A stretch of DNA of 64,000 nt, taken from the NCBI GenBank assembly GCA_017416855.1, contig JAFQAZ010000002.1:1-64000 (forward strand), in the 5' to 3' direction. Position numbers and translations under genes: made by a program. The number at the start of each line of letters is the position of its first letter. Position 1 is the stretch's first letter. Under the pieces are notes generated by a model. It was given only the letters and a program-made list of their open reading frames with translations, ran no database searches and was not told the origin of the DNA. The stretch comes from Clostridia bacterium (GTDB lineage Bacteria; Bacillota; Clostridia; UBA1381; UBA9506). Below are positions 23,618-50,617 of the stretch, one piece after another.

Positions 23618-23623
23618 AATAAT

Positions 23624-23652
23624 AAATATCCCCCGTATAACGGGGGATATTT
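23624..23652 (+). terminator. Terminator-like hairpin
   Basis: AAATATCCCCCG and CGGGGGATATTT form a perfect 12-base stem with a five-base loop; ATTTTTTC follows in the plus direction. No plus-strand gene is directly before it apart from the tRNA 400 bases away, so it may be left over from an element. Confidence 0.65.
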
Positions 23653-23729
23653 ATTTTTTCATCAACTAATTATAACATATTTAATTGAATTTTAAACACT
23701 CGAAAACAACTGAAATACTCTATATAATA

Positions 23730-24944
23730 TTATTTGACCATTTTTTCGGCATATCTTTTAATAATTGCAGATGTTTCGGCTCTAGTTGCCTTTCCCGAAG
23801 GATCCAGCATGCTATTATCCTTACCGCTTATAAGCCCAGATGATACTGCCCATTCAAAAGCAGTTGTTGCCCAGGATGAAATCTTTTCACTATCCGCAAA
23901 GGAAGACAGATCACTCTTAGCTGTCAGGTCCATTTTTTTATACTTTGAGTAATTATAGAATATAACTGTTATCTGCTCTCTTGTTACAGGCTCATCAGGA
24001 GCAAATCTGTTATCTCCCACACCATTTACAATGCCTGTTGAAGCCGCCCAATCAACACTTTTCGTGTACCATTCGGTTCGTGGAACATCCGAAAAACCAT
24101 ATGTCATAGAAGAAGGCGATCCTTCAAAACGATATAGAATTGTAACAAGCATTCCTCTTGTCAAAGAAGATCCCGGATCAAATTCATTAAATCCGACTCC
24201 ACTCATAAGCTCATTGTCATAAACATACTTAACACTCTCATAGAACCAGTCCTTTTCTTTCACATCAAAAAAAGGATTTTTCCAAGGCTTAGCTTCCTCT
24301 GCTTTATTTTCTATTGTATTTTCTTTCTCTAGTTCAACTTTTTCTCCCACAGAGTTTCCATCTGACGGAGTATTATTTTTATCCTGAGAAATAGAAATAT
24401 CAGTTTCTTTATCAGTTTCATCAGGTTTTGTTTCAGGTTTTTGGACGTCTTCTACAGGCTTTTCGCCCGGAACAACTATTTTTAAAGCGTCAACATTTAA
24501 TTTTGTCTCAAATTCCTGAGATGCATTTGCCACAATGGTAGTTGTAGGTGTAAAAACATATTCTGTGCCGGCTTCAGCATCCTCTGGTACTCCAAAGGTA
24601 ATTTTTGCCACAAGCTGAGTTTGGGTTTCTATAATATTTCCAACCCCCAACAAACTTTTTCCGTTAACTGCCACATTTTCCCATCCTGTGTTGTTTTTAA
24701 TGATATCCGTCCTTTTAAGTTTAGGAAAGTTTTCGGATAAATCAAACTCAACCTGTATCCCTTGTATGTCAAACCCTGCATTTATAGTAACATCAATTAC
24801 TACAACAGCATCTTCTCCTGGATTGGCAACAGATGTTCCGCTTATGTTTATAGTTGCCGGAACACTATCTGCAAATACAATTAATGGACACATCAAAGAT
24901 AGAACTGTTATTACACAAAGAATTTTTACAAGTGCTTTTTTCAT
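23730..24944 (-). CDS. Cohesin-like/SLH cell-surface anchoring protein
   Basis: A 404-residue exported protein. Signal peptide (MKKALVKILCVITVLS..., cut near VFADS), a cohesin-like beta-sandwich (about 28-165) with the typical PGEDAVVVIDV strand and a 'GIQVEFDLSE' strand, an acidic Pro/Glu/Lys/Thr linker (about 166-225), then three SLH modules (about 225-404: 'FFDVKEKDWFYESVKYVYDN', 'FSDVPRTEWYTKSVDWAAST', 'FADSEKISSWATTAFEWAVS'). SLH modules hold proteins on the secondary cell wall polymer. ATG 24944 has AAGGAG. Third gene of the surface operon, after a perfect hairpin. It probably anchors the dockerin-bearing partner encoded upstream; the cohesin call is from pattern and fold logic, not alignment. 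Confidence 0.8.
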   Translation of the reverse strand: MKKALVKILCVITVLSLMCPLIVFADSVPATINISGTSVANPGEDAVVVIDVTINAGFDIQGIQVEFDLSENFPKLKRTDIIKNNTGWENVAVNGKSLLGVGNIIETQTQLVAKITFGVPEDAEAGTEYVFTPTTTIVANASQEFETKLNVDALKIVVPGEKPVEDVQKPETKPDETDKETDISISQDKNNTPSDGNSVGEKVELEKENTIENKAEEAKPWKNPFFDVKEKDWFYESVKYVYDNELMSGVGFNEFDPGSSLTRGMLVTILYRFEGSPSSMTYGFSDVPRTEWYTKSVDWAASTGIVNGVGDNRFAPDEPVTREQITVIFYNYSKYKKMDLTAKSDLSSFADSEKISSWATTAFEWAVSSGLISGKDNSMLDPSGKATRAETSAIIKRYAEKMVK

Positions 24945-24978
24945 CTTTTTTCTCCTTGCAGTTTTTACTTAATAAACA

Positions 24979-25014
24979 TTTGAGTTTTCTTGCAAAAATG
25001 CAAGAAAACTCAAA
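24979..25014. repeat. Perfect 16-base hairpin inside surface operon
   Basis: TTTGAGTTTTCTTGCA and TGCAAGAAAACTCAAA pair perfectly around AAAA, between the two cohesin-SLH genes. On the minus strand no T run follows, so a full terminator is unlikely; it may slow transcription, mark an RNA processing site or protect the upstream mRNA. Confidence 0.7.
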
Positions 25015-25023
25015 TAACCCATA

Positions 25024-28000
25024 TTATTTTATTTCAAAAAATCTTTGGAGTGTGGCTGCAACCTCTGCTCTTGTAGCATTAGCACGCGGTATAAATTCAT
25101 TTTCAGGAGTTCCTGTCATAATATTTACACTTCTTAAGAATGCTACTGCATCACCAGCCCATGAAGATATCATATCTTTATCAGCATACTCTGCTTCTGT
25201 TGCCACAGTTATATCTAACCCCTTAAACTTTGCATAACGATAAATGATTGCAGCAATTTGTTCGCGGGTTATATTATTATCAGGCATAAACTCTGTTTCA
25301 GAAACACCTGACACAATGCCATTTTCAAGCGCCCAGATAACTGCATCTGAATAGTATTCGCCCTCTGCCACATCGGAAAACACCTTCTTAGGCTCGATTT
25401 CAGGCTGTTCTTCCGCTCTATATAGAACTGTTACCAGCATCGCTCTTGTAAGAGGACTATTTGGTGCAAAGTCTGTTTCCGATACTCCGTTAAAAAGACC
25501 TTTCTCAACAACATATTTTACAGCATCATAATACCATTCAGAATTTTTCACATCCGCAAAAGTGATAACAATTTCCTCATTACCCTCAGGCTTTTCAGGC
25601 TCAGCTGACTTTTCTTCCCATTTTGCATAAAGGGTAATTGGTTTTGTTATGGCCATGTCAGCATCAAACAATGTTTTAAGTTCCTTATCTGTGCACCAGC
25701 CAACAAAGGTATAACCATCTTTTACAGGAATAGGAAGAACATTTATCTTTTGGTCTTTACGGATACTTATCGGTTTAACTTCTTTTCCTCCATTGACAAC
25801 AAAACTAACAGTGTATTTTGTTATGCTACCGCCACCGCCGCTTGATATAACTACCTTATTGAATTTAGCGACAAGATTTAAATCTTCGGTAACTGTAAAT
25901 GTATAGCTATTACTTGGTGAAACAAGTGTACCACCATTATACCAACCTGCAAATTCATAACCACTGTCTGCTGTTGCAACAACTGTAACAGATGTATTTT
26001 TAACATACACACCCGCTCCGCTTACGTTGCCGTTACCCTGTGTGGTTATGTCTATCTGATATGTTTCGTGTGCCGGCACAGTTGCAGTTATAGTCGCAGT
26101 ATCTGCACCATCTGTTCCGTCTACGCTTGTTACTGTAAACACAAGGTCTACTGTTAAATCTGTGTCACCTGTGTAAATAACACCCTGTAAGTCTATAATA
26201 GTCTCATCAGATGAAGATTTTAAAGTAACCGTAAAGCCTTCCGGCACAGTTGGAAGAACAAGGGTTGTTGCGTTTCTATCTATAACAACATTTGTTATTT
26301 GTGCCGCAAGGTCAGCAGCAGTAATTGTTGCTTTGATTGACGCCGTTGTTGTGAAGGTATCTGAATCCAAAACATAGTTTCCTGATTCTTCTCCTATCAC
26401 ATCAAGACCGATTATATTTACTGTTATTCCATCTCCAACTTCAGAAGAAGCAAACTCCGCTGATGCCTGACTTAAATCAAGCATAACGATGTCACCGCTT
26501 AACACTCCGCTTAAAACAGCACTTGTTTCATTAATAACCGCTTCGTTTGTTCCATCATATGCTTTATCAAAAACATTAAGAGTTACTATCGAAAGTGTTT
26601 TTTTGTTAACAGTAAGTGTATAATCAGTACCATAAATAATGTTATAGTTATCTGCCTCAGCACCACTCAGGATTATATCATATAGTCCTGCATCAGGAGA
26701 AGCATCAAAGCCAGTTGCAACTGCCTCTGAAACAAGAATATCCTTTGTCTCGCCGCCTACAAAGCCGCTGTAATTAACAGGAACTGTAAACTCATCACCA
26801 TAGGTAATCTCTACATTTTCAGAAGTAATATTAAGGTCAGCCTTTAAAATTTCAAAGTCTTTTGTTACTGTTCCAACATAATTTCTCTTAGCTGTAACAG
26901 TTGCGCTTCCGCCCTCTGCGACTGTGATATTTGTGCCATAGGTAATATCATAGTCATCAGTTGTTATAGTAGCATCGTCAGCCACCTCAACCGCAGGGGT
27001 TATCTGCGCTGCAGTATATGTGTGAGAAGCTATATTTCCTACCATAGCCTCAGTTAATGTTTTTGGCGTTATAACAACATCAAGAGAACCTGTGCAGTTG
27101 CTGTAATTCTCCGCAGTTGCCTTGTAGTAAACAACATAATTTCCGGCATTTGTATATTCAGGCATCTCAGATAAATCATACACACCCTCTGAAAGACCAT
27201 ACATAACCTGTGCATAATCACAATTTGTTATGGTTACAGAAGCACCGTGTGCTTGACCATCATAAACACCTTCATAATCCTGCTCTGTTGCGCGAAGAAC
27301 AGCGTTTGCAATCTCAAAGTCCTTTGTTATGCTTCCGCTATAATTTCCTTTACCTTCAACAGTAACACTACCGCCCTCTGCAACGGAGATATTTGGGCCA
27401 TAGGTTACTGTATAGTCATTTTCGGTAATTTCGCAAGGGAGAGTGTCTCTTATGACAACTTCCGGTTTAATCTGCTCACCTGTAAACTCCTGAGCAGTAA
27501 TATTTTCAAGCATTTCAGGTGTTAAATCTTTTGGAGAAATATTAACCGTAAGTTCGCCTGTAACCTCATTATAGTTATTATCTGTTATCTTGTAATAAAC
27601 AGTATAGTTTCCTTTATTTTTATATTCAGGTGCAACCGAAAGGTCATATGTTCCTAAAGTGGTACCATACATAACCTGAGCTGTTGCCGGCTGGGTTACA
27701 TTTACACTTACTGTGTGATTAACACCGTCATAAGTTCCATCGTATCCTGAAGCTGAAACTACCATATCAATAGGTGTTATAGAAAAATTCTTTGTTGCGC
27801 TTCCGGTATAGTTTCCGTCACTTTTACCTGTAATTGTTACGCTACCACCTGTTAAAACGTTTATGTTTTCGCCATAGCTTACTGTATAATCATTTTCGGT
27901 GATTATACTTGGGCTTCCGTCCGCAACTGAAAATTCAGGAATAATCTGACTGCCCGTATATGAATAAGGAGCTATGTCTGCAATCATATTTGCAGTTATC

Positions 28001-30168
28001 TGTTTCTGGTTTATAATAACCTTAACACTTCCGGTATTATCAATATAGTTTTCAGCCGTTGCTTTATAATAAATTGTATAAGTTCCTACATCCTTATATT
28101 CAGGCATAGAATCAAGATTATAAACTCCTTCTTCTACGCCATATTTTACAACTGCAGCAGAAGGCTTTGTTACGCTTACTGATGCAGTATGCATCGCTCC
28201 ATCATAAACTTCTTCATAATCAGAAGTTGAAACGGTCATTGGGATAGGAGTTATATTAAAATGCTTTTCTACATTTCCAATATAATTTCCCTCACCTTCG
28301 ATTGTTACGCTTCCGCCTGATAAGACATTTATGTTTTCGCCATAGCTTACTGTGTAATCATTTTCTGTGATTATACTTGGGTTTCCGTCAGTTACCGTCA
28401 CAGCCGGCTCAATTTTTTCTCCGGTGTATGGCATATCAGGAATATCTGCAACCATGGAAGGTTCTAACGTCTTAGGAGTTATTTCTACCTGCATACTTCC
28501 TGTCTTTGTTATATAATTCGGATTTTCTATCTTATAATATACAGTGTTTGAGCTTACATTTTTAAACTTTGGATTTTCTGTTTCAGAATAATTTCCCTCA
28601 ACAGTTCCGTAACTAATCTCAGGAGTTCCTATAATCGAAACATTAAGTGTTGCACTATGCTCCTGTCCATCATACACATCATTGTAATCTGTTGAAGTTA
28701 CATCCATTTCGATCGGATTGATTGTAAATGTCTTCTGAGCTGTGCCTTTATAGTTACCGTCACTTTTATCTGTAATTATCACGCTGCCGCCTGCTAAGAC
28801 GTTTATGTTTTCACCATAGCTTACTGTATAATCCTCAGGTTTAATTATGCTTGGACTTTCGTCAGTTACTGTAACAGACGGTGTTATCTGACTGCCTGTA
28901 AAATCATAAGAATATATATCTAGAATCATATCGTCAGTTAACTGTTTCTGTTTTACAATAACCTTAACACTTCCGATGTAATCTTCATAGTTTTCAGCAG
29001 TTGCCTTATAATAAATCGTGTAGGTTCCTGCATCTTTATAACAAGGCATAGAATCAAGATTATAAACCCCTTCTTCTACGCCATATTTTACAACTGCAGC
29101 AGAAGGCTTTGTTACGGTTACTGACGCGGTATGCATCGCTCCGTCATAAACATCTTCATAATCTTCTTCAATCACAATCATAGTATCAGGTAAAATGTCA
29201 AAGTTGACAGTTGCACTACCTGTGTAGTTTCCATCATTTTTACCGGTAACAGTTATGCTACCGCCTGATAAGACATTTATATTTTCGCCATAGCTTACTG
29301 TGTAATCCTCGGGGTTAATTATGCTTGGGCTTCCGTCAGTTACTGTAACAGACGGTGTAATCTGACTACCCGTGTATTTCTGCGGCGAAACAGGGTCTAT
29401 CATACTGCTTTCAATATTCTTCTGAGCAATTTTTACCTTGCCCTGTCCGTATGTATTGCTGTTTCCTTCTTTGCTAACAACGTAGTAAACAGTATACTCC
29501 CCTGCATTTGCAAACTTTGGAATTTTATCTCCATATGTGCTTCCGTCCGCAGAAAATTGGATAGAAGCGCCCTCAGGAATATTAACAGAAATGGTATGTT
29601 CGTCACCGTCATACACACCCTGATATTCTTCCACAGAAATTCCCTCCACAGGAGGAAGGTCGACAACCTCAACACTAGCAAATGAGTTTGTTATACTATA
29701 TTCACTTGCAGAGAGATTATTTCCATCTGAATCACCAACTATAACTTCTCCAAAGCTTATGGTATAAACTGTGCCAAAATCAGCATTTTCAGGTATTTTA
29801 AAAGATATCTGTCCTAAAATCTGACCTCCGTCCGGCACACTGCTTCCTACAACCATAAAGCAGTTTTGATCCATTATAGCCATATATGGGTCACTGGAGG
29901 AAACCTGCGGTCTTATGGTGTCTGTTGTAATTTTACCCTCAATAATTTCAGGAAATCCAGCTGAGTATTCCAAATAGGCGCTTAATCCGCCAACCGCATT
30001 AGCAGCAACATCTAAAGATATAGCTACTAAAACTTCCTGACCTCTTAATGCTGTTGCAGGCGCTGTCATATTAAGCACCGCCTTGGGTGCTGTCTGAGCA
30101 GCACCCACAGGCGTTAAAAGATTAAATAGCATTGCTAATATTAAAATAAGATTTAGTATTTTTTTCAT
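25024..30168 (-). CDS. Cohesin-like/tandem-repeat/SLH giant surface protein
   Basis: A 1,714-residue surface protein. Signal peptide (1-23); cohesin-like domain (about 27-170); six tandem two-domain repeats of about 165 residues (about 178-1165), each with a YDGxxH unit ('VYDGAMHTASV') and a TGxxIxP unit ('FTGSQITPSVTV'); MBG/YDG-like domains (about 1165-1330); an Ig-like part; two repeats of the InlB-B/Flg_new class ('GYEFAGWYNGG', 'GYTFVGWCTDK'); three C-terminal SLH modules (about 1535-1714). The ATG overlaps the preceding stop by one base (TAATG), so the two are translationally coupled. The repeats likely form a stalk. Role inferred: cell-wall anchor for a dockerin protein. Confidence 0.85.
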   Translation of the reverse strand: MKKILNLILILAMLFNLLTPVGAAQTAPKAVLNMTAPATALRGQEVLVAISLDVAANAVGGLSAYLEYSAGFPEIIEGKITTDTIRPQVSSSDPYMAIMDQNCFMVVGSSVPDGGQILGQISFKIPENADFGTVYTISFGEVIVGDSDGNNLSASEYSITNSFASVEVVDLPPVEGISVEEYQGVYDGDEHTISVNIPEGASIQFSADGSTYGDKIPKFANAGEYTVYYVVSKEGNSNTYGQGKVKIAQKNIESSMIDPVSPQKYTGSQITPSVTVTDGSPSIINPEDYTVSYGENINVLSGGSITVTGKNDGNYTGSATVNFDILPDTMIVIEEDYEDVYDGAMHTASVTVTKPSAAVVKYGVEEGVYNLDSMPCYKDAGTYTIYYKATAENYEDYIGSVKVIVKQKQLTDDMILDIYSYDFTGSQITPSVTVTDESPSIIKPEDYTVSYGENINVLAGGSVIITDKSDGNYKGTAQKTFTINPIEMDVTSTDYNDVYDGQEHSATLNVSIIGTPEISYGTVEGNYSETENPKFKNVSSNTVYYKIENPNYITKTGSMQVEITPKTLEPSMVADIPDMPYTGEKIEPAVTVTDGNPSIITENDYTVSYGENINVLSGGSVTIEGEGNYIGNVEKHFNITPIPMTVSTSDYEEVYDGAMHTASVSVTKPSAAVVKYGVEEGVYNLDSMPEYKDVGTYTIYYKATAENYIDNTGSVKVIINQKQITANMIADIAPYSYTGSQIIPEFSVADGSPSIITENDYTVSYGENINVLTGGSVTITGKSDGNYTGSATKNFSITPIDMVVSASGYDGTYDGVNHTVSVNVTQPATAQVMYGTTLGTYDLSVAPEYKNKGNYTVYYKITDNNYNEVTGELTVNISPKDLTPEMLENITAQEFTGEQIKPEVVIRDTLPCEITENDYTVTYGPNISVAEGGSVTVEGKGNYSGSITKDFEIANAVLRATEQDYEGVYDGQAHGASVTITNCDYAQVMYGLSEGVYDLSEMPEYTNAGNYVVYYKATAENYSNCTGSLDVVITPKTLTEAMVGNIASHTYTAAQITPAVEVADDATITTDDYDITYGTNITVAEGGSATVTAKRNYVGTVTKDFEILKADLNITSENVEITYGDEFTVPVNYSGFVGGETKDILVSEAVATGFDASPDAGLYDIILSGAEADNYNIIYGTDYTLTVNKKTLSIVTLNVFDKAYDGTNEAVINETSAVLSGVLSGDIVMLDLSQASAEFASSEVGDGITVNIIGLDVIGEESGNYVLDSDTFTTTASIKATITAADLAAQITNVVIDRNATTLVLPTVPEGFTVTLKSSSDETIIDLQGVIYTGDTDLTVDLVFTVTSVDGTDGADTATITATVPAHETYQIDITTQGNGNVSGAGVYVKNTSVTVVATADSGYEFAGWYNGGTLVSPSNSYTFTVTEDLNLVAKFNKVVISSGGGGSITKYTVSFVVNGGKEVKPISIRKDQKINVLPIPVKDGYTFVGWCTDKELKTLFDADMAITKPITLYAKWEEKSAEPEKPEGNEEIVITFADVKNSEWYYDAVKYVVEKGLFNGVSETDFAPNSPLTRAMLVTVLYRAEEQPEIEPKKVFSDVAEGEYYSDAVIWALENGIVSGVSETEFMPDNNITREQIAAIIYRYAKFKGLDITVATEAEYADKDMISSWAGDAVAFLRSVNIMTGTPENEFIPRANATRAEVAATLQRFFEIK
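28129..29115. repeat. Near-identical internal DNA repeats
   Basis: A stretch at 28129-28175 (beginning CCTTCTTCTACGCCATATTT) recurs exactly at about 29069-29115, 940 bases away, and neighbouring parts are also nearly the same. They encode the same segment of two of the six 165-residue repeats. Slippage or recombination between them could change repeat number by two units. Confidence 0.75.
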
Positions 30169-33100
30169 TATCGTAATACCTCACCATTCTTAATAGCATT
30201 AAACATGAGTATAAGGTCGAGAATGTTTATTCTCGTATCGCTATTTACATACGCAGCTTCTGCATATTCTCCGTCAAGTGACTTTGTTTCTTCATCTGCT
30301 ACATGGTTGAATACCTTAATCATATCCAGAATGTTGAAATTACCATCTCCTGTTGTGTCACCCTTTACTACAACTGTAAGTTCGGAGCTTATTGCTTCAT
30401 CCTGATTTTTGATTATAAGCTTACTTCCTGTTCCAAGCTTGCTTCCTGCTGATACTGCTGTTCCATTAGCCAGTACAACCTCAACATTTGTGTTGTCAAA
30501 GTGTGAGGTAATCTGCTCTGCAGTCATTCCTGCAACAACCTGTTTTAAATAGCTTCCGTCTCCGGTTTGTTTTTCAGTAATATCAAGCTTGCTTTCTGGA
30601 GTAAGAATAAATTCCATATAATCAATACTCTCATCAATTACAAGATACTGAATATGTCCGCATTCCTTACATACTCTATGTTTAATACCAAGTTCTTCAC
30701 CGTTTGCGTCAATTTCTACTATGTATTCACCATAAATATGATTTTCGCAAGCACTCTCATGTTTATCAACTGACATAATTGAGTGACAAATATCACATAG
30801 TGAAATCATATATCCGTCTACATCGGTATCAGGTGAAATAATTGTAACAGCATCTGCCGACTCACAAGTGTGAGCATCTACAACTGTAAAGTTATATTCC
30901 TTAATTTCGTCACCCATCTGGATGTAAAGTGTTCCGTTTCCTGTTTCCAATGCTTTAACAGAAATATATCCGGGGCCAACAAACTTAAGAACACCATCTT
31001 CGATTACTGCATTTTCGTTTGTACTAGTAATTTCAAGTGCCGGACTTGCTATTGATGCCCAAGCCTTAAATTCTACATCACCCATATTGTCTGATGCGGC
31101 AAACTTATTTGAAGTGCCATTTACAAATACTACATCTTCTGAATCTTCATAAGCTGCATTTCCGTCACTTAAAATGTTCATAATCCACGGAGAATCTATA
31201 TGTCCCATTGCAGTTTCAATAACACTGTTTAAATAACTATCCAGTCTTGAAATGCTTGAGAATCTTTCCTCCGGAGTTAATCTGTGAATTGTGTACGGAA
31301 TACTTGTTGTTGAGCCTTCAAGAGTTGATACGAGCACATCCTCAAGATAATACTTAATCGGAATTGACTCAATCGCTCTTCTTAAAAGTTCAAATAACAT
31401 TTCTTCGCTTACTGCATTTTCCACAACAATATTTTCACTGTTTACAATTGCAGTAATTGTGTTTACATATTTAGTAATTCTGTTTGCACGATAGGTTGCA
31501 AAAACATCGTTCTTTTCACAGATTTCGCTCAAAACTTTATAAACGCCTGTTGTTTTTAGCTTGTTGAATAAATTTACTGATTTCTGGCTTTCTGCCACTT
31601 TAACAAGCTCTGCAAAGGCATTAACTGCATTAAGCAGGTTTCCTGCAACCTCAGCATCTGTGCCCTCGTATGCTTTTTTAGTAATAATATTTGAAATACT
31701 GTCCACCATATCTCTTAGAGCAATATATGAATCATTAACTTTCTTTGCTCCTGTGATATATGCTTCGTAAGCAACAAGAAGATTGTCGATATTTCCTACA
31801 TATTTCTTAATTTCGTCAAGTCCTGCTCTTATAAGTGAAGTTCTGAACTCTATATCCGCCTGAACTTCAATTGAAATCTTGTCCCCAGGCTTAAATTCAG
31901 ATGCACCGATACTTGCGATATCATCCTCTGTGAAATATGTTTCGCTTACAAATGCTCCATTTGAGTAATGAGTTACCTTACCCTCTTTAAAGTATTTGAT
32001 TGTGTTGCTTACATTATAAAGTGTTCGGTCTGATACGTTGGTAAGCTCAATTTTGATTGGATATCTGTCTCCATAGAAGGTCATATCAGGAACATATATA
32101 TCCATATGCATTGCATTACCTGCATATACCTTGATTGGCTCTTCCAACGTGTACTTCTGGTCAATAATATCTCCAAGGGGCGAAAGAACTGCATTTAAGT
32201 TTGCGCCTATATTGTATTCGCCTGCAACATCGCCTCTTACATACCAGTGAACTGAACGGCTTTCGCTATGTCCAATATCGTCAACCTTTTGAATAAGAGT
32301 CTGCTGTTCTTCTTTCATTTCTGCAAGAGAAAGTCCATCAGGAAGAACAAGCTCTGCAGTACATTCTGTAACAGTATCTGTGTTTGAATTGTTCATAATA
32401 AGCATTTCAACATCAAACATTTCTTTCAGCCACTGCACTTCACCATATACCATCAAATAGAAGGTTTCAGATACAGGATATACATAAACTGTTCCGGTTG
32501 AAAGATGTACAGGAATCCTTACGTTTCCTACACAGCTGTGATTATCGTTAAAGTATGTAACAATATCTGCTTTTTCTCTTCCGCCGAAGGTAAGTGTTAC
32601 ATTATACTTAACAACATGATTATTTCCTGGAGCAGTTACATCAATGCCTGCGTTTATAATCTCATCATATGTCATAACCTTCGATGAAAGCTTAGCTTCA
32701 ACTAAAGGCTTTGTGCTTATGCCTATTACTGGAACATTCTGTTCTCCTGAAACAACGTTAATCTTCACTGTTCTTGTGAGATAGCCTGACTTATAAACCG
32801 AAACATTCACAACGCCTATTGGAAGCGCCTGCGCAATCTTTCCTTCTTCGTCAGTATAGAATGTGTTTTCACCATCGTTATCAGTTGAAATAAATAACTG
32901 TGCATTGTTTATAGGCTCAAGAGTTATTGCATCAACAATCTCAAAGTGAACAAGTCCGTAGTTCGGATCATTAAGTTCTACTTCAATCTTTTCTATTTCT
33001 TCTGTTTCTGTTTCATAACATACAGAACACTCTCTTGTCATTAAGCCCTCTGAAAGAACATCTGCTTCTTCAATAATTTCCCATTCGCCAAAGGTGTGTC

Positions 33101-36100
33101 CTTCTGCTTTTGTTATATTCTTTTCAACGCGTCCACATCTTGAACAGGTGCGTGTTTCAAGTCCGTCTGTTGTACAGGTAACCTCAGAAACCTTATTCCA
33201 TTCAGAGAACTTGTGCTCACTGCAGATTTTTCCGCCTGCTGATGAAAGGGTAAGATTTCCGTTTTCATCCATTTCCCAAATCATGCCAAAATCAAAGCCC
33301 ACAAAGCTGTCTGCTGATTTCATTTCTTCATCAGTAAGACCTGTGCCAAGGAATATTGCATCTTCATTTTCGTATTGTGCCTCTACAGTGAATGTATCCT
33401 GGTTATAATAACAATTATTAGCTGTAATCTCTGTCTCGTCTGTTTCGTCATAAACAGCTACAAACGGAGTTGCATAATTAACTGTCGAGCCATCAGAAAT
33501 ATCAAATGAAGTATTACTGAAGCATGCATCAAATGATGTTTCGCCATAATATTCAACATTTGCAAAGCCTGCAATATCTTCAGCATAGCCAGGGGTTATT
33601 GTACCTTTATAATAACTGTTGCTGATTTTTGTGTTTGAAACTGCTTCAGAAAAACCTGCCATATAACCTGATGATGTTATATCAACATTTACAGAAGAGC
33701 TATCAACATAACAATCTAAAAGTCCATCTACAAAACCTGAAACTGAGCTGTTTGAATCAGTCTGGACATCTATGCTTCCCTTTACATGAACATTTCTGAT
33801 ATCACAACCTCTTGCAGTTGTAGCAAGAGGAGCTATAACTACATTGTAAATTGAATAATTCGTGCTGATTTCAGTTTCAAGATTCATATTTCTTAGCACT
33901 GCGTTTTCAACATCAATAAAGAAACCTACATTATTATAAGAGCCAATATCAAATGTAATATTCTTTATGCTGTGACCATTACCGTCAAACACACCGCTAA
34001 ACGGAGCACCGGATACTCCCACAGGTTCCCAAGCAGATGTGAGTTCAATATCATTTTCAAGAACATATACGCCGTCAAGGTCATCAGCTATTGCACGAAG
34101 CTCTGCTTCTGTTGAGATTTTCTTTATACTTTTCCTTGCGAAAAGAGCTGTAACAGATGTGTCGTAATAAACAGAGTCAAGTGTCTTATCCCAGCCTGTG
34201 AATACATAGCCAATACCATCATCACCGGCAGGCTTATAGGGAACTGCTCCGCTATATTCACTTTTGTTACCGCCGCGCACTTTATCGGTATATAAAAGTG
34301 TACCATCATAGTTATAATAGTTAACATTTACATAATAAATGCGTGTAAACTGAGCTGTTACAACCATATCCTGATAAACATATGTAAGAGATTTGTTCCA
34401 GCCGGTAAATTCATATTCGTAATTTTCATCTTCTCTTACAGGTGTTTCTCCGTCATATACAGCCGTACCGCCTGCAGGAACTGATACAGTTGAAAGAACG
34501 GTTCCGTCATAGTTTTTAAAGGTTACTGTGTAATTTTCCTTAACAGGTGCAACTCCAACAACCTCAAAACCATATGCTGTGCTACTACCGTCAGATGTAA
34601 GTCTGATACTGAAGGAATTTCCGGGAACAACTACGCTTTGAGCACCAATCGTTCCGGTATAGCTTGCTATCTGCTCGCCATATTGATCATATACATATAT
34701 ACGATCATAATAGTTTTCCGTCTCTGTTTTTTCCGAGAAGGTTACGCGCAGTGCGTCTACTGTTTCATCTTCAGTATATTTATAAGTATATGTTAGGTCT
34801 GTATAATTTGAATACGGATGGTCTGATTCAAGATATATAATAACCTCTTCAAACTGCGCTATGAATTCCGTATCCTCTGTTATACCAATAAGCTCCTTAT
34901 CCCATCCGATGAAACGGTATTTTTTTATACCGTCTGCCGGTTTTTCAGGAGTAAGCCCATTATAAACAGCGTCTTGTTTGTCAAGAACTACCGATGTTTC
35001 AAGAACTGTGCCATCATAATTTTTGAAAGTTACATTATGTGTTACAACCGGCCTTACTTCTGTGATTGCAAAACCGAATTTTTGAGCACTGCCATCAGAT
35101 GTAAGTCTGATAGAGAAGGAATCTCCGGGAACTGTAATTACCGACCCTGATAGCATAGTTCCTGTATACTGCGTCTCATTTCCGTTTTCGTCTATGATAT
35201 ATATATAGTCATAACTTCTTTCAACCTCAGTGTTATCAGAGAAGGTTATCATAAGGCTATCTGCTTCACCATCATAGGTATAGGTATAAACCTTATTCAT
35301 GCTTCTCTGATACGGGTGTTCTGACTGCAACACATATTCGGGATAAATTACATCGCTTGCTTTTGGAAGCACTAAAGGAATACTATTTTCTTCCGCTATC
35401 ACAAAAGCTCGTGAATTGTCGCTGTCACCATAGAATTTATCTCCACTTCCAAGATATACCCTCCACGGAATGTAATAATCACTTTCACTGTTAGCGGTAG
35501 ACGTATAAGCTATTGTAACAGCTTTTCCTTTGTAAGTTTCAGGGAATACCACCCACTCATTTTCTTTGCCGGAATAGCAGCTAACGCCTAAAGTCTTCGT
35601 GAACTCTCCTTCAATTTCCTCAATCATCAACTCACCATAATGGTCTCCTGATGCTGGACCGCCACTAAGCGGGAAATTCACAACCACACCCTTTGGAATG
35701 GTAATTTCGATATCCTCTATGTCTTCGCGTACCATAAAGTTTAAATCGCTGTCCCAGTCATAGTATACTGTTCCGTCTTCAGAATACATAGCATAATCTA
35801 AATATACGTTTACAGGGGTCTCTCCGCTATATGAACCGTCACCATCAAAGTAGTTGGAATTATAGCTATCCTTTGGTGTACCGAACATAAATTCAGCTTC
35901 ACTTGTTTCGCTGTCAAACCATAAGTTTGCATAGCTATCGTCATAGTTTAGGCTGTAATACAGATTTTCTTCAAGTTCTGTGCCCTCTGGAAGCTTAACT
36001 GTACCTGAAAGGGTGAAACCTGTTTCCACTGCAACATCTACATCCTCTGCATCTGTACCATTGTTCAACGCATGCCAATCCTCTGTCCAGTATGTATAAC

Positions 36101-39100
36101 CTTTAACAAGGTTGTTCATCGGTCCGTCGCCAAGGATTTTGATACCAACCTTACAATTTCCTGCAAAGTCATACGGAAGATATGCTTTATAATTCATATC
36201 TTCGTCAACAAAAGCAGTAACGCCTCTTTCACCATAATCGCTTTGTCTCCTGAATATGACATTCACTCTGTCAAGCTCTTCAAGATATTTGTAATCTTCA
36301 TCTACAACAATCTTACCTGAAACCTCTGAAAGCTTAGGAATTACAAAGTTTATATCTGTGCTGTCAGCAGCAACCAAGGTTGCTTCTGACTGATTAACAG
36401 TACCACCTGTCGTTGTGTAATATAGTGTACCGGAGAAAACATTTGAATCTCCTGAATAAAGATTTACATATACTCTATAGTCTCCATAATAATCAGGAAG
36501 AATTATTTTATAATCATAATCCTTAACCGAATTAATATTGATATACTCACTTACAGTATTACCATAGCTTGTATTATATGCATATACATACAATGTATAG
36601 CTGCCTCTTGGCAACTCGCATCCCTCTTCAAAGCTGATTGTTCCCTGAATTGTTTTTGCAAGCTGCGATTGTGTGCCAAGAGTTATACTTATTGGATTAT
36701 TAATCTGGTGTGCTTCTGCTCCAGCGAGTGTCTTTGAATAAGAACCATCAGGATTTACCCAAACATTACCTGATGTATACACATCACCGCTATAAACATA
36801 GTAGGATACATAAAATTTCTCATCAGCAAGTTCTTTTGGTACTACAATATTAGTACTGTAGTTTTTTGTATCCTCAGGCATTGAAAACCATTCATTGGTG
36901 TAGAAACAATCCTCTTCCTCTTCACCCTGATACTCAAGCCTTACCTCACCGTTTATAAAACTATATGAGCTGCTCGGTCTATTTATATTAACTGTAACAG
37001 GAATACCTGTGGTAAGTGCAAAGTCTTTTGTTATGTCACTAGTTAAACTTATAGCTTCGGCATTTTCTTCATTACTTACCAAAGAGCCGTCAGCTGCTAC
37101 AAAAAATTCACCTGTGCATATATTGGTGTCAGGACCTGCTCCCTGAACAGTTGAGTTCGCATAAATACTAACGGTAATCGGCTCTTCATGCTCACCGTCT
37201 TTACGAACAGCAATTATATAGTCTCCGCTCCTGGTTTCGTTATTCAAATAAACGTTTCCATTGCTATCACCGTAGCGAACATTTACATTTACACTGGTTG
37301 TATCAGATATTACTGCATCCTGAGGTAGTGAAACCGTACCTGAAATGGCGTATCCGGTTTCATATTCAATTTCAATACCGGTTACATCTGTTCCCGGAAT
37401 GATATTTACAGAAATAAAGCCTTCTTCATCCTGGTAATAATAATGTCCTTCTAAAATGTTTGAACCTACGCTCCACGGTTTATATGCAGAAACATTATAT
37501 TCTCCGCCGATAAAGTATGGTAAATATGCTTCGAAATTATTATCCTTATCTAAAAATCCTGTTTCGCCCCATGAACGACCTGTTGATGTAATGGTCTCAA
37601 AATTAAGGTCAATATATTCTACTTTATCTGTTGACTTAAAATCTTGGGGGAATATAACCTTACCTGTAACCTTAGTAGCCTTCGGAACTGTAAACTCCGG
37701 AATATCAAGGTCTTCGTCAAGCTCTACCATTGCCGGTGTATAACCTGTGTAAATAAAGCCACCTGTCTCGTAATCATAAATATATTCTGCAAGGCTGATA
37801 TTTGTTTTTACAGGAGTCCAGTTGTCAGCATCGCTGCCGGCTGCTGTTCCGTTTTGATCATTTTCCCAGATGCCAAGTCCAATTCCCGCCCACTTCCAAT
37901 GAACAGGAACATACACTGAATAATCAAAGCCATCTGATATTGAAATTTCTTCAATCTCTTTATGAATTCTCTCGCCGTATTCACTTTCAATATAAATTCT
38001 TGCACATAGCTCTCCGTCTGCAAAAGCATCCTCTGTGAAGCTTACACTTCCTGAAACAGTTTTGTTTAAGGGGAAGTATAAATTACAAACACTGTCCGCT
38101 TCTACATATGAAGCCTCAGAATAGTCAAGAGTCATATTATTGTCAGAAACATAATATGCATTAACATCTGTTCCTATACAGGTTGTATTCTCTAAGGAAT
38201 AAACATATACACCAACTATATATTCATCGTCTTCTGCATCAAGGATTATTGTAAACTCGTTTTCCTCTCCCGGGGTTGATGTTTCGTAATAACATTGATA
38301 GCGTCCGCTTTCGCACTCTGCAAAAATATAGTATTCAACATTTTCCCCGTCATACACCATATCCTCGGGAAGAGTTATTGTACCACTGATAGTTTTTGCT
38401 TTTTCAAGCTGAATGTCTATAATCATATCCTCAGACGCAACAAAAGAACATTCCTCTTGATATCTTGAAAGGGGAACTTCGTCATCCATTATGTAAACAG
38501 ATACATTATAAAGTCCTGAATTCTTTGGATACTTAATAGAATATTTTGTTTCTTTCTGTCCCGCAAGGATACTTACGTATTGATATTCGTAGGTGTCTCC
38601 TTCTAAACACACTTCAAAAGAAATATCCTTATCAAAGGTCACATCTTCAGGAAGAGACACAGTACCTGAAACATTGACCGTTTCCTCAAACGCTATATCG
38701 TATGCCTTTCCAACATTTGTATCGTATGTACTATTAAATGGTTCGTATGTGATAAGATGAGCATACATATTTGTTCCGGTCAAATAAGCTGGCATCACAA
38801 GTTCATATTCTAAAGACCTCTCATCCGGCATAATAACATATTCTTCCGATACACTATTTGAGTCGACCGAAACCACCGCACCGTTTGATGGAGCCGGAAG
38901 AGGCAGGGTTATTGTACCCTCCTGAATATAAAACTTTCCTGCAGATACATCAATATCCATACTCTCTTGAAAAACATATATCTCGCCATCATATACTATA
39001 GTTTCCTCGTTAAAGCTTCCGTCTTGCTCTTTAGCAAAGAACATTTCAAATTGCTGACCAACATATCTTTCAGGAACGTTTATAGCAAAGTTTTCACAAG

Positions 39101-41102
39101 GAAGCTCTACAAGGTCATAGAATATTCCATCACCAAAATCCGCTCCCACATATGCATATCCGGTTAATGCTATTCCATTATCATAAACAATGTTTCCCTC
39201 TAACACAATTGCTTCAGGCTCATTTATAACAATGTTGTAATCTCCATATACATCTGTGGCATCATCCCTGTCTGATACGGTGCCATAGGTTTCAGAATAA
39301 TAGATATATGCAAGGTCTGTGTCATACATCACTATGTCTGAGTTCTCAGGAACTTCCTTATATGCAACATATAAACTTGCATCATCTAAAGACGATCTTA
39401 TGCCTAGTTCTGCTGTAACATATGTGTCTCCTTCGGATGCATATACATAGCTACGGTCATATTCTTCCATATACCATCCGTCATCACAGAACAATGCAAT
39501 CACATAAGTCTTATCAACATCAAGAGCTTCTTCAAAATTAACAGTAACGCTGTATTCATCATAACTGTCATCCGAATCATCATCTTCATCTTCTTCAGGC
39601 AACGGAACTGTTATATCAAGATTATCTATACCCTCTTCAACAAGTATAAAACTTGAACTTCTGCCTTTATTCCCTGAACTTAAACTTCCGGAATAATAAC
39701 TTCCGCTAAAGAAGAAATCACTTTCAAAATAAAGCTCATAGGTACCAAAAGAAAGACCTATTTCGTAATCTACACTTGTTGCACCGCTTGGAACATCAAT
39801 CAACGCATAATATGAATTTCCGTACATAGGCCATGCATCTACATATATATAACCGGCTTCGGTGGGGATGCAATTTGAAAGGTCTATTGTACCGCTTATA
39901 TAACTTTCTGCCACTGGAACTTCCATATCTATATTGCTTTTGTCGCTTAACAAAGTCACAACATCTGCAACATATTTATTAAGAGTAAGACCATCCTCGG
40001 TGTAATAATACCTCAAGTTCGAAATTGACTTATTTCCCGAAAGAAAATGAACTCCGAATATATAGTTATCTGCAGGGAGAGAAACTGAGAAGGAAACGTC
40101 CTTCTGGCCCGCAGCCAAAGTTATAGTTCTATTCCAACAAGCATAATCACTTTTAATAACTCTGCCATTTTCAACAACAGGTGCCTTATAGGCAAATATA
40201 TTCATTATATCTCCTGCGCTGATAATTGCATTTGAAGGAAGAGTTACACTACCTAATACTGTATAGGACTCATCAGGAAATGTGATAGATTCATCTTCCT
40301 CTTCGTCAGTTTCGCCACCAGTAACATTTTCGGAAGAAGCCCCGCCAGGAACTACAGCTGTTGCGCCACCCGAAATTACTGTTTCTCCAACATCTTCTGC
40401 TACAGCACTTCCGCTTGTTGACGCAGTCACATCCTCAGCAGAGGCAATTGATGATCTCATACTGAACATAACAGGTACTTCGCCTGTCTCATCTTCATTA
40501 GAAATTATTTCTTCAAAAGACTCTTCACTTTCTTCGGAAGGCTGTTCATCTTCTTCTATATCATCAGAAACATCGTCTGTTAACTCTTCAGATATTTCGT
40601 CAGTTTCTTCAACATAAACATCCTCTGTATCTTCATAATATTCAGCATCTGTCTCTGTATTCGAAAAATCTTCTGCAAACCAATCATACTCACCAGGATA
40701 GAAACCTGTGTTCTCTAGTAGTTTTTTAATTTTTGCAAATTCTCTTTTGACGGTTTTAGAACGATTTTTCTGTTCCTTTGAAACAGAACTCTCCTTTTCC
40801 AAGGCTGAATTATTCAAAACCGGTGTAGTTTCAAGAATTTCCTCCTCATAATTATAAATGCTTGAAACATTTTCTGAAACCACTAAGTTTTCTCTGTCGT
40901 TTACTGAAAGCATTTCTTGTGTCTCCGCTTGAGCAGATTTAACTTCACTTGCGTTATCAGAATCTAATTCTACGTTATTTTCTTCATTGAAGTTTTGAAT
41001 CTGGTCAATGAGCGGTTCAGAAAATGTCTGTACTGATGCATTGATTGGCAGTGATGTCATAATAAATACAAGCGCCAAAACAATACTCATACATCTCTTC
41101 AC
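30168..41102 (-). CDS. Giant secreted dockerin-bearing repeat protein (3,644 residues)
   Basis: One of the largest genes likely in this genome, 10.9 kb. Signal peptide (about 1-28), acidic Ser/Glu-rich stretch (30-270), about fifteen ~110-residue beta-repeats that begin like VSGTVSLPED (270-1915), two CUB-like domains (about 1920-2020 and 2090-2187, 'SFSIRLTSDGS'), three InlB-B-like repeats (2019-2324), a beta-helix-like GLUG/M26-type region (2324-2624), Cys-rich segments (CSRCG), a regulatory-like beta domain (2717-2787), helical domains (2787-3334), an Ig-like domain, an X-like module and a C-terminal dockerin (3577-3644). Dockerin loop 1 is canonical (GDTTGDGNFNILD); loop 2 (YVNSDTRINILD) has Tyr instead of the first Asp. 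No LPXTG or SLH of its own. GTG 41102 start with GGGGG upstream. It likely docks on the cohesin-SLH proteins encoded downstream. Confidence 0.85.
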   Translation of the reverse strand: MKRCMSIVLALVFIMTSLPINASVQTFSEPLIDQIQNFNEENNVELDSDNASEVKSAQAETQEMLSVNDRENLVVSENVSSIYNYEEEILETTPVLNNSALEKESSVSKEQKNRSKTVKREFAKIKKLLENTGFYPGEYDWFAEDFSNTETDAEYYEDTEDVYVEETDEISEELTDDVSDDIEEDEQPSEESEESFEEIISNEDETGEVPVMFSMRSSIASAEDVTASTSGSAVAEDVGETVISGGATAVVPGGASSENVTGGETDEEEDESITFPDESYTVLGSVTLPSNAIISAGDIMNIFAYKAPVVENGRVIKSDYACWNRTITLAAGQKDVSFSVSLPADNYIFGVHFLSGNKSISNLRYYYTEDGLTLNKYVADVVTLLSDKSNIDMEVPVAESYISGTIDLSNCIPTEAGYIYVDAWPMYGNSYYALIDVPSGATSVDYEIGLSFGTYELYFESDFFFSGSYYSGSLSSGNKGRSSSFILVEEGIDNLDITVPLPEEDEDDDSDDSYDEYSVTVNFEEALDVDKTYVIALFCDDGWYMEEYDRSYVYASEGDTYVTAELGIRSSLDDASLYVAYKEVPENSDIVMYDTDLAYIYYSETYGTVSDRDDATDVYGDYNIVINEPEAIVLEGNIVYDNGIALTGYAYVGADFGDGIFYDLVELPCENFAINVPERYVGQQFEMFFAKEQDGSFNEETIVYDGEIYVFQESMDIDVSAGKFYIQEGTITLPLPAPSNGAVVSVDSNSVSEEYVIMPDERSLEYELVMPAYLTGTNMYAHLITYEPFNSTYDTNVGKAYDIAFEETVNVSGTVSLPEDVTFDKDISFEVCLEGDTYEYQYVSILAGQKETKYSIKYPKNSGLYNVSVYIMDDEVPLSRYQEECSFVASEDMIIDIQLEKAKTISGTITLPEDMVYDGENVEYYIFAECESGRYQCYYETSTPGEENEFTIILDAEDDEYIVGVYVYSLENTTCIGTDVNAYYVSDNNMTLDYSEASYVEADSVCNLYFPLNKTVSGSVSFTEDAFADGELCARIYIESEYGERIHKEIEEISISDGFDYSVYVPVHWKWAGIGLGIWENDQNGTAAGSDADNWTPVKTNISLAEYIYDYETGGFIYTGYTPAMVELDEDLDIPEFTVPKATKVTGKVIFPQDFKSTDKVEYIDLNFETITSTGRSWGETGFLDKDNNFEAYLPYFIGGEYNVSAYKPWSVGSNILEGHYYYQDEEGFISVNIIPGTDVTGIEIEYETGYAISGTVSLPQDAVISDTTSVNVNVRYGDSNGNVYLNNETRSGDYIIAVRKDGEHEEPITVSIYANSTVQGAGPDTNICTGEFFVAADGSLVSNEENAEAISLTSDITKDFALTTGIPVTVNINRPSSSYSFINGEVRLEYQGEEEEDCFYTNEWFSMPEDTKNYSTNIVVPKELADEKFYVSYYVYSGDVYTSGNVWVNPDGSYSKTLAGAEAHQINNPISITLGTQSQLAKTIQGTISFEEGCELPRGSYTLYVYAYNTSYGNTVSEYININSVKDYDYKIILPDYYGDYRVYVNLYSGDSNVFSGTLYYTTTGGTVNQSEATLVAADSTDINFVIPKLSEVSGKIVVDEDYKYLEELDRVNVIFRRQSDYGERGVTAFVDEDMNYKAYLPYDFAGNCKVGIKILGDGPMNNLVKGYTYWTEDWHALNNGTDAEDVDVAVETGFTLSGTVKLPEGTELEENLYYSLNYDDSYANLWFDSETSEAEFMFGTPKDSYNSNYFDGDGSYSGETPVNVYLDYAMYSEDGTVYYDWDSDLNFMVREDIEDIEITIPKGVVVNFPLSGGPASGDHYGELMIEEIEGEFTKTLGVSCYSGKENEWVVFPETYKGKAVTIAYTSTANSESDYYIPWRVYLGSGDKFYGDSDNSRAFVIAEENSIPLVLPKASDVIYPEYVLQSEHPYQRSMNKVYTYTYDGEADSLMITFSDNTEVERSYDYIYIIDENGNETQYTGTMLSGSVITVPGDSFSIRLTSDGSAQKFGFAITEVRPVVTHNVTFKNYDGTVLETSVVLDKQDAVYNGLTPEKPADGIKKYRFIGWDKELIGITEDTEFIAQFEEVIIYLESDHPYSNYTDLTYTYKYTEDETVDALRVTFSEKTETENYYDRIYVYDQYGEQIASYTGTIGAQSVVVPGNSFSIRLTSDGSSTAYGFEVVGVAPVKENYTVTFKNYDGTVLSTVSVPAGGTAVYDGETPVREDENYEYEFTGWNKSLTYVYQDMVVTAQFTRIYYVNVNYYNYDGTLLYTDKVRGGNKSEYSGAVPYKPAGDDGIGYVFTGWDKTLDSVYYDTSVTALFARKSIKKISTEAELRAIADDLDGVYVLENDIELTSAWEPVGVSGAPFSGVFDGNGHSIKNITFDIGSYNNVGFFIDVENAVLRNMNLETEISTNYSIYNVVIAPLATTARGCDIRNVHVKGSIDVQTDSNSSVSGFVDGLLDCYVDSSSVNVDITSSGYMAGFSEAVSNTKISNSYYKGTITPGYAEDIAGFANVEYYGETSFDACFSNTSFDISDGSTVNYATPFVAVYDETDETEITANNCYYNQDTFTVEAQYENEDAIFLGTGLTDEEMKSADSFVGFDFGMIWEMDENGNLTLSSAGGKICSEHKFSEWNKVSEVTCTTDGLETRTCSRCGRVEKNITKAEGHTFGEWEIIEEADVLSEGLMTRECSVCYETETEEIEKIEVELNDPNYGLVHFEIVDAITLEPINNAQLFISTDNDGENTFYTDEEGKIAQALPIGVVNVSVYKSGYLTRTVKINVVSGEQNVPVIGISTKPLVEAKLSSKVMTYDEIINAGIDVTAPGNNHVVKYNVTLTFGGREKADIVTYFNDNHSCVGNVRIPVHLSTGTVYVYPVSETFYLMVYGEVQWLKEMFDVEMLIMNNSNTDTVTECTAELVLPDGLSLAEMKEEQQTLIQKVDDIGHSESRSVHWYVRGDVAGEYNIGANLNAVLSPLGDIIDQKYTLEEPIKVYAGNAMHMDIYVPDMTFYGDRYPIKIELTNVSDRTLYNVSNTIKYFKEGKVTHYSNGAFVSETYFTEDDIASIGASEFKPGDKISIEVQADIEFRTSLIRAGLDEIKKYVGNIDNLLVAYEAYITGAKKVNDSYIALRDMVDSISNIITKKAYEGTDAEVAGNLLNAVNAFAELVKVAESQKSVNLFNKLKTTGVYKVLSEICEKNDVFATYRANRITKYVNTITAIVNSENIVVENAVSEEMLFELLRRAIESIPIKYYLEDVLVSTLEGSTTSIPYTIHRLTPEERFSSISRLDSYLNSVIETAMGHIDSPWIMNILSDGNAAYEDSEDVVFVNGTSNKFAASDNMGDVEFKAWASIASPALEITSTNENAVIEDGVLKFVGPGYISVKALETGNGTLYIQMGDEIKEYNFTVVDAHTCESADAVTIISPDTDVDGYMISLCDICHSIMSVDKHESACENHIYGEYIVEIDANGEELGIKHRVCKECGHIQYLVIDESIDYMEFILTPESKLDITEKQTGDGSYLKQVVAGMTAEQITSHFDNTNVEVVLANGTAVSAGSKLGTGSKLIIKNQDEAISSELTVVVKGDTTGDGNFNILDMIKVFNHVADEETKSLDGEYAEAAYVNSDTRINILDLILMFNAIKNGEVLR

Positions 41103-41192
41103 AAATATACCCCCTCTTTAATAATTTATGGTACAAAATAATTTTTATATAAACATCTTTTAATGATGTATTAAAAAAATAGATACTTATTT

Positions 41193-41221
41193 ATCATAAC
41201 ATTTTATAGTATTTTTGTCAA
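41193..41221 (-). promoter_or_regulatory. Strong promoter of surface-protein operon
   Basis: Read on the minus strand: TTGACA (41216-41221), 17-base spacer, TATGAT (41193-41198) with an extended TG before it. The start of transcription would be near 41186, giving a leader of about 84 bases before the GTG. Confidence 0.85.
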
Positions 41222-50599: not shown

Positions 50600-50617
50600 C
50601 ACTGCCACCTCCTTCTT

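What the first reader, a model, noticed from the sequence alone, without database searches (positions are those of the whole stretch)
23730..41221. Cohesin-dockerin style surface assembly built on a giant non-enzymatic dockerin protein
One operon encodes a 3,644-residue protein ending in a dockerin and two downstream proteins with an N-terminal cohesin-like domain and three C-terminal SLH modules. In cellulosomes dockerins are on enzymes. Here the dockerin partner seems to be a repeat-rich adhesin, and the anchors are co-transcribed with it and, for the first, translationally coupled. This would be a dedicated surface display system. The dockerin call follows the EF-hand loop pattern. The cohesin call is weaker.
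Basis: partly seen in the sequence, partly recalled or inferred. Interest (0 to 1): 0.85.

Follow-up and report, generated by a model that had tools for sequence, protein, structure and literature searches.

The report
Dockerin-tethered giant surface protein operon
A gut bacterium appears to use the plug-and-socket parts of cellulose-digesting machines (dockerin and cohesin) to hang one giant, apparently non-enzymatic protein on its cell wall, with the plug protein and two wall-bound sockets encoded side by side as a conserved three-gene cassette.

Summary
Confirmed and strengthened. The window holds a self-contained three-gene unit: a 3,644-aa giant, a 1,714-aa protein and a 404-aa protein. 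The giant ends in a type I dockerin (Pfam, over cut-off) that is the only dockerin found in the 2.37-Mb genome. The 'weaker' cohesin call holds: both N-terminal domains are predicted with confidence (pLDDT 83 and 92) and match solved cohesins best (Foldseek E about 1e-7; Z 13.9 and 12.7). Both proteins end in three SLH modules. A goat-cecum relative keeps exactly these three genes at 45-55% identity, in the same order, with the same tight coupling and the same intergenic hairpin. The giant's conserved C-terminal module occurs in other Clostridia with a wall-binding module (SLH or choline-binding repeats) where this one has its dockerin, so the dockerin most likely serves as its anchor, through the SLH-cohesins. 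The same layout (dockerin passenger, long and short cohesin anchors) recurs in two more loci near this lineage. The parts are known (SLH-anchoring scaffoldins, non-enzymatic dockerin proteins); the dedicated cassette is a new variant. Corrections: the second EF-hand loop is degenerate, so calcium dependence is uncertain; 'adhesin' is inference; binding is untested.

The parts
41193..41221 (-). promoter-like site, TTGACA-17-TATGAT with extended -10 TG
   Evidence: 11 of 12 consensus; the relative L092 has 12 of 12 at the same place
30168..41102 (-). giant dockerin protein, 3,644 aa, 405 kDa, pI 4.1; no catalytic domain found
   Evidence: 45% identical over 3,436 columns to a 3,661-aa protein in L092
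30639..33281 (-). conserved module of the giant (residues 2608-3488), shared with many Clostridia
   Evidence: identity to L092 84% at residues 2801-3000 against 28-34% at the N-terminus
30171..30374 (-). C-terminal dockerin (residues 3577-3644); loop 1 near-canonical, loop 2 starts with Tyr
   Evidence: PF00404 26.6 bits over the 22.9 cut-off; alignment A7
25024..30168 (-). long SLH-cohesin anchor, 1,714 aa: signal peptide, cohesin, six repeats of about 157 aa, YDG, InlB-type repeats, 3 SLH
   Evidence: start overlaps the giant's stop
29659..30090 (-). cohesin of the long anchor (residues 27-170)
   Evidence: AF2 pLDDT 82.7; Foldseek top hits cohesins, E 5.7e-8; Z 13.9 to 4uyq
24977..25016 (-). 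18-bp intergenic hairpin between the two anchor genes
   Evidence: z -5.4; a hairpin of different sequence at the same place in L092, z -5.7, without a T-tract
23730..24944 (-). short SLH-cohesin anchor, 404 aa: signal peptide, cohesin, about 60-aa linker, 3 SLH
24450..24866 (-). cohesin of the short anchor
   Evidence: AF2 pLDDT 91.7; Foldseek E 1.4e-7 to 4ums; Z 12.7 to 4uyq
23621..23655 (.). 16-bp terminator-like hairpin after the operon

Best explanation
This is a dedicated two-component surface-display cassette. The 405-kDa passenger is secreted and held on the cell by its C-terminal dockerin, which plugs into the N-terminal cohesin of either of two co-expressed proteins; their SLH modules bind the secondary wall polymer. 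The long anchor (about 1,370 residues between cohesin and SLH) and the short anchor (about 60) would display the passenger at two heights. Shown: the genes, the dockerin by sequence, the cohesin folds by predicted structure, the SLH modules, a single bounded gene cluster, conservation of the whole cassette, and relatives with wall-binding modules in the dockerin's place. Inferred: the physical pairing, co-transcription, the two heights, and the passenger's job (most likely adhesion, as its N-terminal repeat half is the fastest-diverging part).
For: Sole dockerin of the genome directly upstream of two cohesin-SLH genes. Cohesin folds. Exactly three genes, same order and coupling, in L092 at 45-55% identity with different flanking genes. 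Terminal swap on one conserved module: dockerin here, in L092, L094, L102 and L109; SLH in L099, L108, L114; choline-binding repeats in L106. The cohesin pair of this operon groups together (93/88) and was duplicated before the two species split, both copies kept. Same layout in L178 and L063.
Against: No binding shown; no complex model could be run. Dockerin loop 2 has Tyr at position 1, and L092 also departs in loop 1, so calcium binding may be partial. Cohesin folds also occur in domains that bind no dockerin: the adhesin CLIPPER domain 9ifr ties with the best cohesins (Z 13.7 and 12.4). Two other cohesin-SLH proteins of the genome (C30, C17) could be alternative partners.
Confidence: 0.78

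Rival explanations
1. The giant's dockerin does not bind its operon neighbours; it binds the cohesin-SLH proteins on contigs C30 and C17, while the operon's two cohesins bind dockerins of other cells or have another ligand.
For: C30 and C17 also encode cohesin plus three SLH. Specificity cannot be read from sequence here.
Against: Only the two neighbours travel with the giant in L092, and the four operon cohesins group together apart from the C30 and C17 pair.
Confidence: 0.1
2. The N-terminal domains have a cohesin-like fold but act as adhesin or homophilic domains, and the dockerin-like end is degenerate; all three are independent wall proteins that are simply co-expressed.
For: Degenerate EF loop 2; sub-threshold Pfam scores; the CLIPPER adhesin domain has nearly the same fold.
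Against: Without dockerin pairing the giant has no recognised anchor (no SLH, no LPXTG), while relatives with the same module have one in that place.
Confidence: 0.08
3. A reduced cellulosome: the enzymes carry dockerins too divergent to be found.
For: A dockerin of the relative G009 was missed by Pfam and found by eye, so misses happen.
Against: A profile built from such divergent dockerins finds only the giant in this genome; no cohesin-rich scaffoldin. The genome is 97% complete.
Confidence: 0.04

Closest known systems
SLH-anchoring scaffoldins of Acetivibrio cellulosomes (OlpA type: cohesin plus SLH)
   Same: Cohesin joined to SLH on one secreted protein; holds a dockerin partner on the wall (definition in PMC11557425).
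   Different: Cohesins at the N-terminus in a divergent subfamily; one dedicated passenger in the same operon; no scaffoldin and no dockerin enzymes.
Non-enzymatic dockerin proteins of Ruminococcus flavefaciens (LRR-Doc and 'unknown'-Doc)
   Same: Dockerin on a protein without catalytic modules; the authors suggest a role in structuring the cell surface (PMC2930009).
   Different: There they sit among some 200 dockerins of a cellulosome; here it is the only dockerin and encoded with its own anchors.
Noncellulosomal cohesins and dockerins (Peer et al. 2009; ANME archaea, PMC9012536)
   Same: Cohesin-dockerin pairs outside cellulose degradation.
   Different: The passages read here do not describe an operon of one giant passenger with long and short SLH-cohesin anchors.
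Paenibacillus guangzhouensis cohesin-dockerin adaptors with five SLH-anchoring scaffoldins
   Same: Surface assembly distinct from cellulosomes, with SLH anchors (PMC11557425; genus name expanded from memory).
   Different: Many adaptors, often with glycoside hydrolases; here one non-enzymatic passenger.

Membership tests
Cohesin | nine-stranded beta-sandwich cohesin fold | tested here: met
   Both domains: top Foldseek hits are cohesins, E 5.7e-8 and 1.4e-7; Z 13.9 (2.7 A over 129) and 12.7 (2.6 A over 127) to 4uyq
Cohesin | Pfam PF00963 score over the curated cut-off | tested here: inconclusive
   Best family for both but 18.1 and 12.2 bits against 24.1; a detection limit rather than a defining feature. 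The L092 orthologues show no PF00963 match
Cohesin | binds a dockerin | not testable with these tools
   No complex modelling or assay available
Dockerin type I | PF00404 score over the curated cut-off | tested here: met
   26.6 bits in the genome search, 25.6 for the isolated stretch, against 22.9; 20.8 in the whole-protein scan
Dockerin type I | two calcium-binding F-hand loops | tested here: inconclusive
   Loop 1 DTTGDGNFNILD near-canonical; loop 2 YVNSDTRINILD lacks the first Asp, also Tyr in L092 and L094
SLH-anchoring scaffoldin | at least one cohesin paired with SLH modules | tested here: met
   Three SLH each plus cohesin folds
Cellulosome | multi-cohesin scaffoldin and dockerin-bearing carbohydrate-active enzymes | tested here: not met
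   One dockerin in the genome, on a protein with no catalytic domain hit; no multi-cohesin scaffoldin found

The most novel reading that the evidence does not exclude
A general, passenger-exchangeable display system in uncultured gut Clostridia: each cassette pairs one dockerin passenger (from about 200 to 3,644 aa) with a long and a short cohesin wall anchor, so that the passenger is shown at two defined heights above the wall, and cassettes coexist orthogonally in one cell through private cohesin-dockerin specificities.
Probability: 0.35. Interest if true: 0.72.

Novelty: new variant of a known kind. Interest (0 to 1): 0.58.

Why it matters
It gives a clean natural case of cohesin-dockerin pairing used for something other than enzyme assembly, in a genome with one dockerin, so partner specificity is unambiguous to test. 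It suggests how huge surface proteins without their own wall anchor are displayed in gut Clostridia, gives three cassettes for comparing private specificities, and offers compact, divergent pairs for engineered surface display.

Tried and rejected
Single-sequence and small-profile PDB searches were too weak: the first returned chance hits, and the cohesin profile reached cohesins only at E 0.35-0.96; the dockerin stretch returned mostly designed ankyrin and beta-trefoil proteins. A class-wide search with the two-domain profile found no further members in 391 genomes. Plasmids and viral contigs gave none, so there is no sign of mobility. The cellulosome reading was rejected on the genome-wide counts. 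The hairpin as a terminator was rejected because the T-rich tail is absent in the relative. Self-BLAST for repeats in the giant printed nothing, so repeats were placed by motif.

Full report
The observation. The three ORFs are present at the stated coordinates on the minus strand: a 3,644-aa giant (41102-30168), a 1,714-aa protein (30168-25024) and a 404-aa protein (24944-23730). All begin with signal-peptide-like stretches. They form one bounded unit: a terminator-like hairpin follows the upstream gene (41475-41446) and a near-consensus promoter lies at 41221-41193; a hairpin follows the third gene (23655-23621). The giant's TAA overlaps the ATG of the next gene. Between the second and third genes lies an 18-bp hairpin (25016-24977) with no promoter-like site next to it on that strand. 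Co-transcription is inferred from this layout.

The dockerin. Pfam Dockerin_1 matches giant residues 3580-3637 at 26.6 bits in the genome search and 25.6 as an isolated stretch, over the 22.9 cut-off; in the whole-protein scan it scores 20.8. It is the only match in the 2.37-Mb genome (97% complete). A profile made from five divergent dockerins, which also recovers one that Pfam misses in a sister species, again finds only this one. Loop 1 (DTTGDGNFNILD) is near-canonical. Loop 2 (YVNSDTRINILD) has Tyr where the first calcium ligand should be, as do the two closest dockerins.

The cohesins. By sequence they are borderline: PF00963 is the best family but below cut-off (18.1 and 12.2 bits). The two domains are homologous to each other (25% identity, E about 2e-7 without signal peptides). 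AlphaFold2 predicts both well (pLDDT 82.7 from two sequences; 91.7 from four). Foldseek's top eight PDB matches are cohesins for each (E 5.7e-8 and 1.4e-7); VIA-align gives Z 13.9 and 12.7 to the ScaC cohesin 4uyq. The adhesin CLIPPER domain 9ifr is tied with them, so fold alone does not prove dockerin binding. Both proteins end in three SLH modules.

Comparative evidence. A search for relatives of the giant's residues 2608-3488 in 84,980 genomes found a goat-cecum MAG (L092) with exactly the same three genes: 3,661, 1,708 and 413 aa, 45%, 54% and 48% identical. The flanking genes differ, so the three-gene cassette is the conserved unit. L092 also keeps a perfect promoter, a 1-nt gene junction, and a hairpin of unrelated sequence but equal form at the same place. 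That hairpin has no T-tract in L092, so termination is unlikely to be its conserved role; mRNA processing or protection is my guess.

Terminal swap. Other members of the 880-aa module family carry different modules at the C-terminus: three SLH (L099, L114), at least two SLH (L108), choline-binding repeats (L106), dockerins (L092, L094, L102, L109). Some relatives (L114, L117) share only part of the module. Where these relatives have a wall-binding module, this giant has a dockerin. This is the best evidence that the dockerin is its anchor, and it needs the SLH-cohesins to reach the wall.

A recurring layout. The goat relative (G467) has a second cassette: a 400-aa cohesin-SLH protein, a 238-aa dockerin protein and a 2,168-aa long-spacer protein with SLH repeats and a probable but undetected N-terminal cohesin; the ORFs start 6 and 12 nt after the previous one ends. 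Sister species G009 has a 1,426-aa cohesin-SLH protein, a 202-aa dockerin protein, and a 337-aa protein with cohesin and a Cu-amine-oxidase N-terminal domain, an anchor type listed for cellulosomes. More distantly, G070 and G015 pair non-enzymatic dockerin proteins with cohesin anchors. In a tree, the operon cohesins of this window group together (93/88) and were duplicated before the two species split; in G009 too, the two cohesins of one locus are closest to each other. Many other forks of that tree are weak.

The giant. It has no catalytic domain in Pfam or NCBIfam. It has ten or more repeats of roughly 90-130 aa, CUB-like domains, a GLUG-like region (by eye), the conserved module and the dockerin. 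Identity to L092 rises from about 30% at the N-terminus to 84% at residues 2801-3000: a variable outer half on a conserved base, as expected for an adhesin but not proof of one.

Verdict. The system works like the anchoring half of a cellulosome with the enzymes left out. SLH-anchoring scaffoldins, non-enzymatic dockerin proteins and noncellulosomal pairs are known, so it is a new variant. New, as far as the papers searched show, are the dedicated operon, the sole dockerin on a giant passenger, and the long-plus-short anchor pair.

Noticed in passing
G024:C4, G055:C18, G049:C12, G041:C3, G046:C56, G071:C208: ORFs of 13,449 to 29,380 aa in genomes of the same order, sharing a GLUG-like stretch with the giant: extremely large genes.
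   Followed up: no
L095, L096, L100, L113, protein C-termini: Shared tail with Cys motifs around a hydrophobic segment (CxCH..GF..LFG..CxCGxxHY/W) on relatives of the giant's conserved module; perhaps a sorting signal. No Pfam match for L100.
   Followed up: partly
L088:5536-9306 and L089:6884-8950 (contigs C30 and C17 of the window's genome): Two further cohesin plus SLH proteins, associated with beta-propeller-like sequence, with no dockerin in the genome other than the giant's.
   Followed up: partly
window 33281-30639 and relatives L092-L113: An 880-aa module of unknown function, up to 84% identical between species whose giants are 45% identical overall, found in many gut Clostridia with different N-termini and different anchors.
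   Followed up: partly
window 48533-50608, minus strand: By eye, an N-acetylglucosamine-6-phosphate deacetylase fused to a ROK-family kinase.
   Followed up: no
window 13637-16327, plus strand: By eye, an M28-like peptidase fused to an aminoglycoside 3-N-acetyltransferase-like domain.
   Followed up: no
L085:7235-13474, L088, L089, L090: A C-terminal domain with the motif MLWD/MVWDxLxxM recurs on secreted proteins of this genome and replaces the dockerin in the G026 relative of the giant; no Pfam match seen.
   Followed up: no
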